Notes under the pieces: model-generated
Databases searched by the model: none
What the model was told of the DNA's origin: nothing
Seen by the model: the letters and a program-made list of their open reading frames with translations, nothing else
Translations under genes and position numbers: made by a program
Part shown: positions 42,026-50,630 of the stretch, piece by piece
Layout of the letters: the number at the start of each line of letters is the position of its first letter
How positions within the stretch are numbered: position 1 is the stretch's first letter
Origin: Phototrophicus methaneseepsis
Lineage (GTDB): Bacteria > Chloroflexota > Anaerolineae > Aggregatilineales > Phototrophicaceae
Reading direction: 5' to 3'
Length of the DNA stretch: 64,000 bases
Assembly: GCF_015500095.1 (NCBI RefSeq)
Contig: NZ_CP062983.1
Coordinates: forward strand, 1,736,001 to 1,800,000

Positions 42026-43081
42026 ATGATGCAAAACTTGTTGAAGACGGATAGGCAAGCCGCTGATTGGGGGATTCTCTTTGCAGTGGGCGTTTGTATA
42101 GCGATTATTGCTCTGGGCGGCTATCTAACGCAGTTCCCGCTGGCAACTGAAGACCCGACAGCGCCGGATATGTTCCTGGGCTTCTTCTACCAATGGCAGC
42201 TTGCCAATCCAACGATCCTATCGCGTTTGACGGCATGGGTGGCTTTTGCGGTGCACACCTTGTTGATCTGGATGACGATCTATTGGGCTGTAGAGAAATC
42301 GCCCCGCACGTATACGGACCGCCTCAAGCCTGTGAATTATGTCGCCCTGGGGATTAACGCCCTGTTCATCGTGCTGCATTATCTGCAAACGGCTGTCTTC
42401 TATGATGGGCTGGCGCAGGACGTCCCCAGTTGGACGGCCCAGTTCACGGTCATCATGATGCTGTTCATCATCATCGCTATTGAAAACCGGCGACGGGGCA
42501 TGTTCTTTGGCAAGAAGGTGCCGTTCCGTAAAGAGTTTTATCGCTGGCTGCGCGATTATCATGGTTACGCCTTTAGCTTTGCCGTGATCTATACCTTCTG
42601 GTTCCATCCGATGGTATTTACATGGGGGCACCTGGTCGGTTTTTTGCATGTGATGCTGGTGATGGTACAAGGATCGCTGATGTTCACGCGGATGCACCTC
42701 AACCGCAAGTGGATTCTTATTTTGGAGCTGCTGGTGCTGCCGCATTCCGCCATCATCGCCATGACGCAGGCCAATAGCCTGGCGTATATGTTCGTCTTTG
42801 GCTTTATGTCCATCTTCATTGTGACGCAGATGCACACCTTGCGTCTCAAAACATGGGTGAAGAACCTGATTTATCTGGGTTTTGTGGCGACGCTGCTGTA
42901 TGTCTACTTGTTCGTGCGGCAGCCCTACCAGATTAATGAGGTCATCCGCATCCCCTTGATTGATTACCTGATGATTTTCATGACCTATGGGCTGTGGTTA
43001 TTGTTTGCGCGCCTGACGGGCCGGGTGGACAGTTTGAGAGTGGAGGAGCCAGCTCCGCCGATGCCTGTAGCTGGGGACTGA
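42026..43081 (+). CDS. Polytopic membrane protein, unknown family
   Basis: A 351-residue protein with about nine hydrophobic helices, starting at ADWGILFAVGVCIAIIALGG. Loops are short; several histidines lie inside or next to helices (AFAVHTLLIWM, FIVLHYLQTAV, YGYAF-like YHGYAFSF, WFHPMVFTWGHLVGFLHV), which could bind haem or metal but may be chance. The tail after about residue 330 is Pro/Glu-rich. I do not recognise the family. ATG has AAGAAGGG upstream. It is a stand-alone gene; the next feature is a hairpin at 43110. Confidence 0.75.
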   Translation: MMQNLLKTDRQAADWGILFAVGVCIAIIALGGYLTQFPLATEDPTAPDMFLGFFYQWQLANPTILSRLTAWVAFAVHTLLIWMTIYWAVEKSPRTYTDRLKPVNYVALGINALFIVLHYLQTAVFYDGLAQDVPSWTAQFTVIMMLFIIIAIENRRRGMFFGKKVPFRKEFYRWLRDYHGYAFSFAVIYTFWFHPMVFTWGHLVGFLHVMLVMVQGSLMFTRMHLNRKWILILELLVLPHSAIIAMTQANSLAYMFVFGFMSIFIVTQMHTLRLKTWVKNLIYLGFVATLLYVYLFVRQPYQINEVIRIPLIDYLMIFMTYGLWLLFARLTGRVDSLRVEEPAPPMPVAGD

Positions 43082-43146: not shown

Positions 43147-43197
43147 TTATCCTAACCTGAGAGAGGCTTTTTCTGGTTGCTCACTGATGTGAACAGG

Positions 43198-43227
43198 CTA
43201 TGATGGGAGTATGTTTTTCCATCATAG
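43198..43227. promoter_or_regulatory. Perfect 9-bp inverted repeat before the DUF4062 gene
   Basis: CTATGATGG (43198-43206) and CCATCATAG (43219-43227) are perfect inverted repeats with a 12-nt spacer, ending 14 bp before the likely start at 43242. The spacing fits a repressor site or a leader hairpin that could hide the AGGA ribosome-binding site. Confidence 0.5.
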
Positions 43228-43241
43228 TTTAGGATATGGCG

Positions 43242-44501
43242 ATGCTAAAGCGCGTTTACATCAGTCTTTCTTATGGGTTAGAAATCGAAAATATTCAGGT
43301 TCAATTTGGCACAGCAGATACCATCTGGTATCTGCTTGGCGGGTATCATTCCCAAGCGCAGCCCCTATCTGTGATTGATTTTGACAAGATAAATGTCTTT
43401 GTGGGCATCTATGGGCCGAATTACGGGCCTGTTCCAGAAGGTGACACGGCTTCCATCACCGAACAGGAATACACACTCGCATCACAAAGTTATATCCCCA
43501 TGTTGATCTTCGCACAGCAACAGGCCCGCGAAACTGACGACGAGCGGCAATATGCTTTCCTACAATATGTCGCCCGCCATAATGTAATCAATCAGTTTAC
43601 GTCAGCAGAAGATTTATCCGCCAAATTGGCTCTGGCAATCAAGCAGCTTTTTAATCAGCAGGGGACTGTTGCGCGCGCCCAGGTAGCGCCACCGGAGCCG
43701 CCGATTATCACGCCAGAACCAAAGTTTGGCTCTCGCACCCGTTCAGCAGTACCGCCGCCAGCCCCCGCGCCTGCTGCACCTGCGCCGTCTCGCTCTGCTG
43801 AATTTGACGAATCAGACGAGATGGCCGCTTTGGAAGAACAGGGCGTTCTGCTTGGCGGGGAACTCGCCACACCGGATGACCCTTTTGAAGCGACAATTGA
43901 CCGGGCGCTGGCCCTGGCGAGCGATGACCTGGAGACGATTGTGCGGCGCGCTCTGGAACTACACGATGCACAGCGCCTTGTGCATGAGGAGAATTTGCCC
44001 GATGGCTGGCTCAAGGTCGATCCACTGTTTGGGCAGCCTTCGATGCGCAGCCAATTCCAGATGGATATCTTCATGGTGATGCCGTTTGAAGAGCCTTATA
44101 ACAGCATCTATCATGATCTCATTGTGCCGATTGCGAATGAACTCAACCTGGTGATTAAGCGCGGGGATGAATTCGCATCGCAGCGCGGCATTATCATCAG
44201 CGAAGTATGGGCCGCGATGAATGGCTGCCGTATGGTCATCGCGGATGCTTCTCTGCCGAATCCGAACGTCTACTATGAGCTTGGCATTGCCCATACGCTG
44301 GGCAAGCCGACCATCTTGCTGACGGATACAGAGGACTTCGACACGGTCCCGTTCGATATTCAGCATCTACGCTTTGTCAGCTATGAAAATTCGATTGAGG
44401 GTGGCAATAAGCTACGTGAGGATTTGCGCAAAAATATCTTGTGGCTGCTCAATGATCTGCAAGAGGCCGATGATACGGGCGGCAATGCTGATCAAACATA
44501 A
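43242..44501 (+). CDS. DUF4062 domain fused to a TIR-like/deoxyribosyltransferase-like domain
   Basis: A 419-residue two-domain cytoplasmic protein. The N-terminal domain (1-135) matches DUF4062: KRVYISLSYGLEIENIQ, the strand INVFVGIYGPNYGPVPEG and SITEQEYTLA. A Pro/Ala-rich linker (about 150-190) follows, then a helical stretch and a C-terminal Rossmann-like domain (about 275-405): DIFMVMPFEEPYNSIYHDLI, GCRMVIADASLPNPNVYYEL and GIAHTLGKPTILLTD. The Glu in YYELG is the position of the catalytic glutamate in related nucleotide hydrolases. DUF4062 proteins are often found with NTPase signalling or immune modules; no partner is next to it. The ATG at 43242 is preferred over 43236 because AGGA lies seven bases before it. 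Confidence 0.85.
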   Translation: MLKRVYISLSYGLEIENIQVQFGTADTIWYLLGGYHSQAQPLSVIDFDKINVFVGIYGPNYGPVPEGDTASITEQEYTLASQSYIPMLIFAQQQARETDDERQYAFLQYVARHNVINQFTSAEDLSAKLALAIKQLFNQQGTVARAQVAPPEPPIITPEPKFGSRTRSAVPPPAPAPAAPAPSRSAEFDESDEMAALEEQGVLLGGELATPDDPFEATIDRALALASDDLETIVRRALELHDAQRLVHEENLPDGWLKVDPLFGQPSMRSQFQMDIFMVMPFEEPYNSIYHDLIVPIANELNLVIKRGDEFASQRGIIISEVWAAMNGCRMVIADASLPNPNVYYELGIAHTLGKPTILLTDTEDFDTVPFDIQHLRFVSYENSIEGGNKLREDLRKNILWLLNDLQEADDTGGNADQT

Positions 44502-44525
44502 AAAGCCGGGTTAACCCGGCTTTTT
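44500..44525. terminator. Symmetrical terminator
   Basis: AAAAAGCCGGGTT and AACCCGGCTTTTT form a perfect palindrome that overlaps the TAA of the DUF4062/TIR-like gene and ends in a T-run. Being symmetrical it can stop the convergent gene at 44555 as well. Confidence 0.9.
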
Positions 44526-44554
44526 AACGAAGCAAACTGTATCATCTCGTCTGA

Positions 44555-45037
44555 TTATTCGTCGTCGGTGAGGTCGTCGGCCATGCCATCAATCTTATCC
44601 ATGAGGTCGTCGGCTTCTTCGCTGAGCCGATCCCCACGTTTTTCTGCTGTTTCTTGGGTGCGGTCGATGGCGGTATCAAGTTGTTTATGCAGGCGTTGAC
44701 CTGCCGATTCAAACCCGGCCTGAATATCCTTAAAGGCGGCTTCCATCTCTGTGAAGAAATCTTTGGCGGCGTCTTTTGCATCGGGTGTGGCATCCGAAGG
44801 GGTATCCGATGGCTTGGGGGTTTGCTTGTTGACTGTCGCCTGGAGTTCATCAACCGCTTGCATGAACTGCGTTTTTGCTTCTTCCCCGGCTTGATTGGCA
44901 CGATCCATAAACTGATCCAGATCAATGCCCCATTCCTTGAGGGTGCCCTTTAATTCTTCGCCTTTGGCACGCAGATCCTGGACAAACTTATCTTCCTGAC
45001 GTGGACCTTTTGGTGGAATCTGTTGTTCATCACTCAT
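44555..45037 (-). CDS. Acidic helical protein, probable coiled coil
   Basis: A 160-residue charged protein without hydrophobic segments. It is nearly all helix-forming, with regular hydrophobic spacing: QDLRAKGEELKGTLKEWGID, ANQAGEEAKTQFMQAVDELQ and RTQETAEKRGDRLSEEADDL. A short Thr/Pro/Asp linker (about residues 75-92) separates two helical halves. The ends are acidic. The pattern recalls phasin-like or late-embryogenesis-like proteins, but no family motif is seen. GGAG precedes the ATG. It converges on the DUF4062 gene across one terminator. Confidence 0.7.
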   Translation of the reverse strand: MSDEQQIPPKGPRQEDKFVQDLRAKGEELKGTLKEWGIDLDQFMDRANQAGEEAKTQFMQAVDELQATVNKQTPKPSDTPSDATPDAKDAAKDFFTEMEAAFKDIQAGFESAGQRLHKQLDTAIDRTQETAEKRGDRLSEEADDLMDKIDGMADDLTDDE

Positions 45038-45206: not shown

Positions 45207-45704
45207 ATGATCTCTTCAAAACAGCTAACCGATATTCGTCAACGTCAAGTTGGGTTGATGCAAAAAACGCTCCAACTCTGGCAGAATGTCATCTCACAGG
45301 TGACGCAAGAAGAAGCCACAACCTATCGCGATGGTCCGGATGGCTGGACCGTCCTGGAAGTGCTGGGTCATATACGTGATTTCGATGGGTTTTTCCTGGG
45401 GCGTGCCAAGATGATGTTGGAACAGGACATGCCCCAACTGCCGCGTTATGATCACGAAGCGATTGCCATCGAGCAAGCTTATAATAAACAGGACTTGCAG
45501 ACTGTCATTGCAGAACTGACTGCTTCGCGCGAGGCGTTCATTGCTTTCTTCCAGGGCCTGGATGATGAACAATGGGAACGTGCTGGCATTCACCCGGAAC
45601 GCGGCGAATTTAATATGCTGGACGCAGCTATACAGGTTGGCGGCCATGATGTCAATCATCTGGAGCAGGTGACGCGTATCCTCAAGCAGCGCGAGGAAAA
45701 ATAG
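45207..45704 (+). CDS. DinB family protein
   Basis: A 165-residue four-helix-bundle protein of the DinB/YfiT-like superfamily. The three metal-binding histidines are visible: His in TVLEVLGHIRDFDGFFLGR (about residue 54) and the pair in VGGHDVNHLEQV (HxxxH, about 150 and 154). In such proteins a divalent metal serves thiol-dependent transferase or hydrolase reactions, and members are often induced by stress or damage; the substrate here is unknown. The ATG lies after a weak AGAAAG. The next gene is the HAD phosphatase, 55 bp downstream on the same strand. Confidence 0.88.
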   Translation: MISSKQLTDIRQRQVGLMQKTLQLWQNVISQVTQEEATTYRDGPDGWTVLEVLGHIRDFDGFFLGRAKMMLEQDMPQLPRYDHEAIAIEQAYNKQDLQTVIAELTASREAFIAFFQGLDDEQWERAGIHPERGEFNMLDAAIQVGGHDVNHLEQVTRILKQREEK

Positions 45705-49965: not shown

Positions 49966-50184
49966 GTGTCTGTTCAAGACTTGATTCAACAAGCACAAAC
50001 GCTTTCTGTGAATGAGCGTAAACAACTTATGAAAGCCCTTGTTGATATGTTTGAATCGGATAGTGCTCAAATACAAAAGCGCCGTCTGAGGGACTTCAAA
50101 GGCGTAGCCGCTCATTTATATGACGGAACTGATGCGCAGGGTTATGTAAATCAGCTTCGCGATGAGTGGGACGATCATTCGTGA
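49966..50184 (+). CDS. Small antitoxin-like protein of a VapBC-like pair
   Basis: A 72-residue protein starting at a GTG preceded by a G-rich Shine-Dalgarno run. The first half is a helix-rich segment, VQDLIQQAQTLSVNERKQLM, common to small antitoxin-type proteins; the second half is acidic and charged and would wrap the toxin. It is not a recognisable AbrB, RHH or Phd protein. Its stop overlaps the PIN-domain gene by 4 bases (GTGA), which means translational coupling. The inverted repeat upstream fits autoregulation. Assignment rests mainly on the position before the PIN gene. Confidence 0.7.
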   Translation: MSVQDLIQQAQTLSVNERKQLMKALVDMFESDSAQIQKRRLRDFKGVAAHLYDGTDAQGYVNQLRDEWDDHS

Positions 50185-50630
50185 AAATCCCGGATGTGTT
50201 GCAAGATGTGCACGCCCTATGTATAGAAACAGCCCCTTATATTTATTATATTGAAGGCCATCCGCATTATGCAGCCAAGATGGATGCCATCTTCGCATTC
50301 ATCGAAGCTCAGGAAATCCAAATTTATACCTCGGTCTTGACGCTGACAGAAACGTTAGTGAAGCCGATTCAACGAAATGATGAGGCTGTAGTTAATGCCT
50401 ATCGCGCGCTGTTGACGGACACATCTCCCGTTCATCTCATGCCTGTGACGCCACCTATTGCTGAGAAAGCGGCTTATTTGCGTGCACAATATAATCTGCG
50501 CACGCCGGATTCTCTGCATGTTGCCCTTGCCATCGAAATGGGCTGTGAGGCGTTTTTGACGAACGATAAAGGCATCAAGAGGGTCACAGATTTGGTTGTC
50601 CTAGTTCTGGACGAACTAGAACTCCCTTAA
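50181..50630 (+). CDS. PIN domain ribonuclease, VapC-like toxin
   Basis: A 149-residue PIN-domain protein expected to be an RNase inhibited by the preceding antitoxin. Conserved PIN positions are visible: the first acidic position reads ETAPYIYYIEGH with Glu in place of the usual Asp, then Glu in TLTETLVKP, and RTPDSLHVALAIEMGCEAFLT with Asp, then NDKGIKRV. The fold is convincing; the Asp-to-Glu change at the first site may reduce activity. The GTG start shares bases with the antitoxin stop. No other toxin-antitoxin genes are near. Confidence 0.85.
   Translation: MKIPDVLQDVHALCIETAPYIYYIEGHPHYAAKMDAIFAFIEAQEIQIYTSVLTLTETLVKPIQRNDEAVVNAYRALLTDTSPVHLMPVTPPIAEKAAYLRAQYNLRTPDSLHVALAIEMGCEAFLTNDKGIKRVTDLVVLVLDELELP

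What the first reader, a model, noticed from the sequence alone, without database searches (positions are those of the whole stretch)
43198..44525. DUF4062 plus TIR-like domain protein with a tight inverted repeat in front
The protein joins a DUF4062 domain to a nucleotide-hydrolase-like domain containing ADASLPNPNVYYELG. DUF4062 and TIR-like domains occur in bacterial immune and nucleotide-signalling systems. A perfect 9-bp inverted repeat sits immediately before the start, and a symmetrical terminator closes the gene, so it is a single-gene unit with its own control. It could be a stand-alone NAD- or nucleotide-depleting effector.
Basis: partly seen in the sequence, partly recalled or inferred. 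Interest (0 to 1): 0.6.

Follow-up and report, generated by a model that had tools for sequence, protein, structure and literature searches.

The report
Two-domain TIR-like bacterial immune protein
A bacterium of the Chloroflexota carries a single-gene protein made of two related enzyme-like domains, an eroded DUF4062 front half and a well-kept TIR-like back half, which probably destroys the cell's NAD+ when a phage is sensed; no defence activity has been shown for this protein.

Summary
The gene is real: an ORF of 421 codons at 43236-44501 (true start probably ATG 43242). Homologues confirm two domains: an N-terminal DUF4062 domain and a C-terminal TIR/nucleoside-deoxyribosyltransferase (NDT)-like domain, joined by a disordered linker and a helix.

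DUF4062 was shown in 2026 to be a TIR-like NADase used in phage defence (Swarozyc; PMC13174449). Here that domain keeps the aligned catalytic Glu (E76) but has lost the SST, DL..R and P..ME.F motifs and, in the model, helix A. It has only 33% identity to the syntenic orthologue in the same genus, against 73% for the C-domain. The C-domain keeps the catalytic Glu (E348), N344 and F279 in a Cap12/TIR-STING-like pattern.

Best reading (0.5): a one-protein abortive-infection NADase whose fast-evolving DUF4062 half senses or gates and whose C-domain cuts NAD+. Against it: no defence island, synteny within the genus, and housekeeping neighbours (DinB_2, RadA). The fold alone does not separate NADase from N-glycosidase.

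The 9-bp inverted repeat overlaps a -10-like box; its right arm is not conserved. The terminator hairpin sits between convergent genes.

Verdict: new variant of a known kind; interest 0.4.

The parts
43177..43204 (+). possible sigma-70-like promoter TTGCTC-16 nt-TATGAT; the -10-like box lies in the left arm of the inverted repeat
   Evidence: sequence read directly; below the threshold of the consensus scan; GGCTATGATGG.AGT.TG kept upstream of the same-genus orthologue L060
43198..43227 (.). 9-bp perfect inverted repeat, 12-nt spacer
   Evidence: RNA fold z -3.6; right arm not conserved in L060
43231..43234 (+). AGGA, likely ribosome-binding site for ATG 43242
   Evidence: sequence
43236..44501 (+). 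CDS of the DUF4062 + TIR-like protein (421 aa from ATG 43236; likely start ATG 43242, 419 aa)
   Evidence: homologues
43236..43682 (+). N-terminal degenerate DUF4062 domain (aa 1-149)
43461..43463 (+). E76 codon, aligned with the catalytic Glu of KpSwz (SITEQEY / SFTEKAF)
43683..43883 (+). Pro/Ala-rich linker (aa 150-216), mostly predicted disordered
   Evidence: AF2 pLDDT mostly under 60
43884..43985 (+). helix 217-250, possible stalk or oligomerisation helix
44043..44474 (+). C-terminal TIR/NDT-like domain (aa 270-413)
44265..44279 (+). N344-V-Y-Y-E348, active-site signature with catalytic Glu E348
   Evidence: E in 98% and N344 in 95% of 41 relatives
44499..44526 (.). perfect 14-nt palindrome, intrinsic terminator-like hairpin between convergent genes

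Best explanation
It is a single-gene TIR-superfamily effector. The C-terminal TIR/NDT-like domain is the catalytic unit and most likely hydrolyses the glycosidic bond of NAD+ using E348, once several copies come together. The N-terminal DUF4062 domain, itself descended from a TIR-like NADase, is here mainly a fast-evolving sensor and/or autoinhibitory clamp. A trigger, probably a phage protein, would change the packing of the N-domains, align the C-domains through the helix 217-250, switch on NAD+ loss and stop the infected cell (abortive infection). Shown here: the domain identities, the conserved glutamates, the fast N-domain and conserved C-domain, and the patchy one-gene distribution. Inferred: the NAD+ substrate, oligomeric activation, the phage trigger and the defence role.
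For: DUF4062 domains are NADases in phage defence (Swarozyc), shown biochemically and structurally in PMC13174449; the family profile hits that protein, PDB 10wc, at E 2e-25 and E76 aligns with its Glu. 39 of 41 C-domain relatives match PADLOC's TIR effector model PDLC00733 (window domain E 3e-7). E348, N344, F279 and P372-F373-D374 are at least 95% conserved. N344 and E348 are spaced like N80 and the catalytic E84 of the NADase SfSTING (PMC9402430). A Phe at the first strand is usual in TIR NADases, a Tyr in NDT, DNPH1 and ThsB2 (PMC11204291). Fold: SPARTA TIR Z 14.4, rmsd 2.4 over 126; SARM1 Z 13.6, rmsd 2.6 over 123. Between syntenic same-genus orthologues the N-domain is 33% identical, the C-domain 73%, neighbouring genes 65-82%, as for a sensor under pressure. 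Patchy: relatives at E <= 0.001 in 24 of 61 genomes. C-domain relatives sit as lone genes on prophages and plasmids, one about 2-3 kb from an AbiE pair.
Against: No defence genes next to the window gene or next to most relatives, whose neighbours are DinB_2, RadA, PEPcase, SCO1 and the like. The gene lies in a syntenic block shared with the congener, so it is inherited there rather than recently mobile. NDT, DNPH1 and MilB N-glycosidases fit the fold as well as TIR NADases (Z 14.0 against 14.4, a tie) and are the best sequence-profile hits. Fast N-domain change could be loss of constraint rather than an arms race. No activity data exist.
Confidence: 0.5

Rival explanations
1. Both domains are active NADases, or the DUF4062 domain is still the main enzyme as in Swarozyc and the C-domain is auxiliary.
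For: E76 and the S..E.EY motif are kept in the window protein and nearly all relatives; DUF4062 is a proven NADase (PMC13174449).
Against: The window domain lacks SST, DL..R and P..ME.F motifs and shows no helix A in either model; relative L010 lost the E.EY motif while keeping the C-domain Glu; DUF4062 profile score is below cut-off.
Confidence: 0.15
2. The C-domain is a nucleotide N-glycosidase or deoxyribosyltransferase acting on (d)NMPs, e.g. a nucleotide-pool sanitiser or a nucleotide-depleting effector.
For: Best profile hits are NDT, DNPH1/Rcl and MilB; Pfam's only match to the window C-domain is Nuc_deoxyrib_tr, below cut-off; frequent neighbours include RadA and DinB_2 genes.
Against: Phe rather than Tyr at the first-strand position (inferred by aligning the strand on the conserved Pro); 39 of 41 relatives match the TIR effector model; fusion to DUF4062.
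Confidence: 0.2
3. A housekeeping or stress-signalling protein of this Chloroflexota family, tied to the DinB_2 and RadA loci, with no role in immunity.
For: Adjacent or overlapping DinB_2 gene in L062, L064 and L068, and nearby in the window and L061; RadA next to others (L066, L068, L069, L071).
Against: Patchy presence, while DinB_2 and RadA loci occur without it; exchangeable N-terminal modules (wH-like, Clp_N, others) on the same C-domain; relatives on phages and plasmids.
Confidence: 0.15

Closest known systems
Swarozyc (DUF4062 TIR-like NADase, KpSwz; PMC13174449)
   Same: DUF4062 domain homologous (profile E 2e-25), aligned catalytic Glu kept, single-gene unit with a second domain behind the DUF4062 domain
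   Different: The second domain here is another TIR/NDT-like enzyme fold, not the HTH/winged portal-binding AUX domain; the DUF4062 domain has lost core motifs and, in the model, helix A; not in a defence island
CBASS TIR effectors, TIR-STING/Cap12 (PF10137, PADLOC PDLC00733)
   Same: C-domain signature N..(F/Y)E with the same spacing as N80/E84 of SfSTING; matches the PADLOC TIR effector model
   Different: No CD-NTase-type gene among the neighbouring genes scanned and no STING or SAVED domain; only a DUF4062 domain in front
Nucleoside 2-deoxyribosyltransferase / DNPH1 / MilB N-glycosidases
   Same: Same fold (Z about 13-14) and conserved Glu; best profile hits by sequence
   Different: Phe instead of Tyr on the first strand, Asn at the positions before the Glu, fused to DUF4062

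Membership tests
DUF4062 (PF13271) | Pfam gathering score | tested here: not met
   20.0 bits against 24.7; several full-length relatives do pass it, e.g. L006 31.8 bits
DUF4062 (PF13271) | homology to characterised DUF4062 by family profile | tested here: met
   profile A4, which includes the window domain, hits KpSwz E 2e-25 and TEP1 E 3e-7; the window domain alone does not
DUF4062 (PF13271) | catalytic Glu in the S.TE.EY motif | tested here: met
   E76 in SITEQEY
DUF4062 (PF13271) | SST..DL..R and P..ME.F motifs, helix A | tested here: not met
   absent in alignment and models
Swarozyc | portal-binding HTH/winged AUX domain | tested here: not met
   C-terminal half is a TIR/NDT-like domain
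Swarozyc | NADase activity and phage defence | not testable with these tools
   needs assay
CBASS TIR effector (PADLOC PDLC00733) | profile match over the TIR domain | tested here: met
   E 3e-7 for the window C-domain; 39 of 41 relatives
CBASS | neighbouring CD-NTase gene | tested here: not met
   none among the window genes scanned with PADLOC
TIR NADase fold | flavodoxin-like TIR fold with a Glu on helix C | tested here: met
   VIA Z 14.4 SPARTA, 13.6 SARM1; E348 on helix 343-354
NDT/DNPH1 | Tyr next to the catalytic Glu on the first strand | tested here: not met
   F279, Phe in 95% of relatives; the position was inferred from the alignment, not by superposition

The most novel reading that the evidence does not exclude
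A TIR-on-TIR immune protein in which one TIR-like NADase domain (DUF4062) has become a non-catalytic, fast-evolving sensor or clamp controlling a second TIR-like NADase in the same chain: a pseudo-enzyme receptor made from the same fold as its effector.
Probability: 0.3. Interest if true: 0.6.

Novelty: new variant of a known kind. Interest (0 to 1): 0.4.

Why it matters
DUF4062 has only just been recognised as a TIR-like NADase. A family that joins it to a second TIR-like domain, with the DUF4062 half eroding and diverging while the second half stays conserved, offers a natural test of how TIR domains divide sensing from catalysis, in a poorly studied phylum.

Tried and rejected
Inverted repeat as conserved operator: not supported; the same-genus orthologue keeps only the left arm, which holds the -10-like box. 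Frameshift or missed upstream coding explaining the short DUF4062 half: no DUF4062 motifs in the other frames upstream, and the same-genus orthologue L060 also lacks the motifs. Fold search of the N-domain alone gave no match at E <= 0.001 (best 6e-3; mixed Rossmann-like proteins, with TIR-STING and RPS4/RRS1 TIR at E about 0.1); KpSwz did not appear among the listed matches, and whether that structure is held in this library (entries up to April 2026) was not checked. The scan of genome contigs found only one relative. Fold comparison could not separate TIR NADase from NDT/DNPH1. I considered a RadA-DinB cargo hotspot: L068 has RadA-TIR-DinB, and L118, from the genus of L071, has DUF433 and Uma2 genes between RadA and DinB instead; suggestive, few genomes. 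The DUF4062-TIR grouping in the C-domain tree is not firmly resolved (support 94/90).

Full report
Observation. The gene is an ORF of 421 codons at 43236-44501 on the + strand. An in-frame stop at 43230-43232 rules out coding from 43198; AGGA at 43231-43234 fits ATG 43242 best. The gene before it ends at 43081 on the same strand and the gene after it (44555-45037) is convergent, so it is probably transcribed alone. The inverted repeat 43198-43227 is real. Its left arm holds TATGAT, a good -10-like box 16 nt after TTGCTC, although the consensus scan's threshold does not list it. The orthologue in the same genus (L060) keeps that left arm but not the right one, so the repeat is not a conserved control element. 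The palindrome 44499-44526 folds strongly and serves as a terminator-like hairpin between convergent genes.

Domains. Pfam gives two sub-threshold matches, DUF4062 and Nuc_deoxyrib_tr. Relatives from the same family and phylum (named relative: Anaerolineaceae bacterium NAT117) give alignments of 35 DUF4062 domains (A4) and 41 C-domains (A3). A4 finds KpSwz and TEP1, two DUF4062 proteins with solved structures. A3 finds NDT, DNPH1/Rcl and MilB, and weakly Cap12. The two halves are distantly alike (hhalign E 9e-5 but probability 59). AlphaFold gives a confident C-domain (aa 270-413), a mostly disordered linker, a helix 217-250 and a partly confident N-domain without helix A.

Active sites. In KpSwz the only Glu of the SFTEKAF stretch aligns with E76 of SITEQEY; the paper names E97 as catalytic, and I equate the two by alignment, not by numbering. 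The window DUF4062 domain lacks SST, DL..R and P..ME.F. In the C-domain E348 is kept in 98% of 41 relatives, N344 in 95%, F279 in 95% and P372-F373-D374 in 95%. N344 and E348 have the spacing of N80 and E84 in SfSTING. D374 lies 26 residues after the Glu, as does D110 of SfSTING, which completes the partner's active site; this parallel is only suggestive. A Phe rather than Tyr on the first strand favours NADase over N-glycosidase, but the fold alone does not (SPARTA Z 14.4, MilB and DNPH1 Z 14.0).

Evolution and context. In 61 genomes, relatives at E <= 0.001 occur in 24, many by one domain only. The window block is syntenic with the congener. There the N-domain is 33% identical, the C-domain 73%, and neighbouring genes 65-82%. 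C-domains also occur behind other N-terminal modules: wH-like (L026, L027; my reading of the sequence, no Pfam match), Clp_N (L012, where the Glu is lost) and others. A DinB_2 gene overlaps or adjoins the gene in L062, L064 and L068 and is near it in the window and L061; RadA adjoins others. DinB_2 loci also occur without it. Neighbours scanned are not defence genes, except a TIR protein near the L068 relative and a candidate-defence (PDC-S03) match of a Uma2 gene in L071; the SbcC-like gene beside L067 also matches SMC-type defence models, as expected of that superfamily. C-domain relatives are lone genes on prophages and plasmids.

Mechanism and rivals. I commit to a one-protein NAD+-depleting abortive-infection effector in which the C-domain is catalytic and the DUF4062 half senses or clamps (0.5). 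Rivals are an N-glycosidase (0.2), a Swarozyc-type active DUF4062 (0.15) and a housekeeping role (0.15). Shown: domains, conservation, divergence, distribution. Inferred: substrate, oligomeric activation, trigger, defence.

Novelty. DUF4062 NADases and TIR effectors are known. The fusion of the two with an eroded DUF4062 half was not found in the papers searched; the Swarozyc paper notes DUF4062 proteins with additional enzymatic domains, and its supplement could not be read. New variant of a known kind.

Noticed in passing
window 45207-45704 +; L062, L064, L068: A DinB_2 (YfiT-like) gene lies next to the TIR-like gene in several genera, overlapping it by a few bases in L064 and abutting it in L062.
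   Followed up: partly
L113 269-1246 -; L012 994-1896 +: In one genus both the DinB_2 protein and a TIR-like protein carry a Clp_N domain in front; the TIR-like one has lost its catalytic Glu.
   Followed up: no
L068, L071, L118: Stretch beside RadA (between RadA and DinB_2 in L068 and L118) holds different small cargo: TIR-like gene, PIN_3, DUF433, Uma2; may be an insertion hotspot.
   Followed up: partly
L066 8123-10266: Two different DUF4062-TIR-like genes lie head to tail, a few bases apart, in one genome.
   Followed up: no
window 50166-50630 +: PIN-domain (VapC-like) gene, no antitoxin identified.
   Followed up: no
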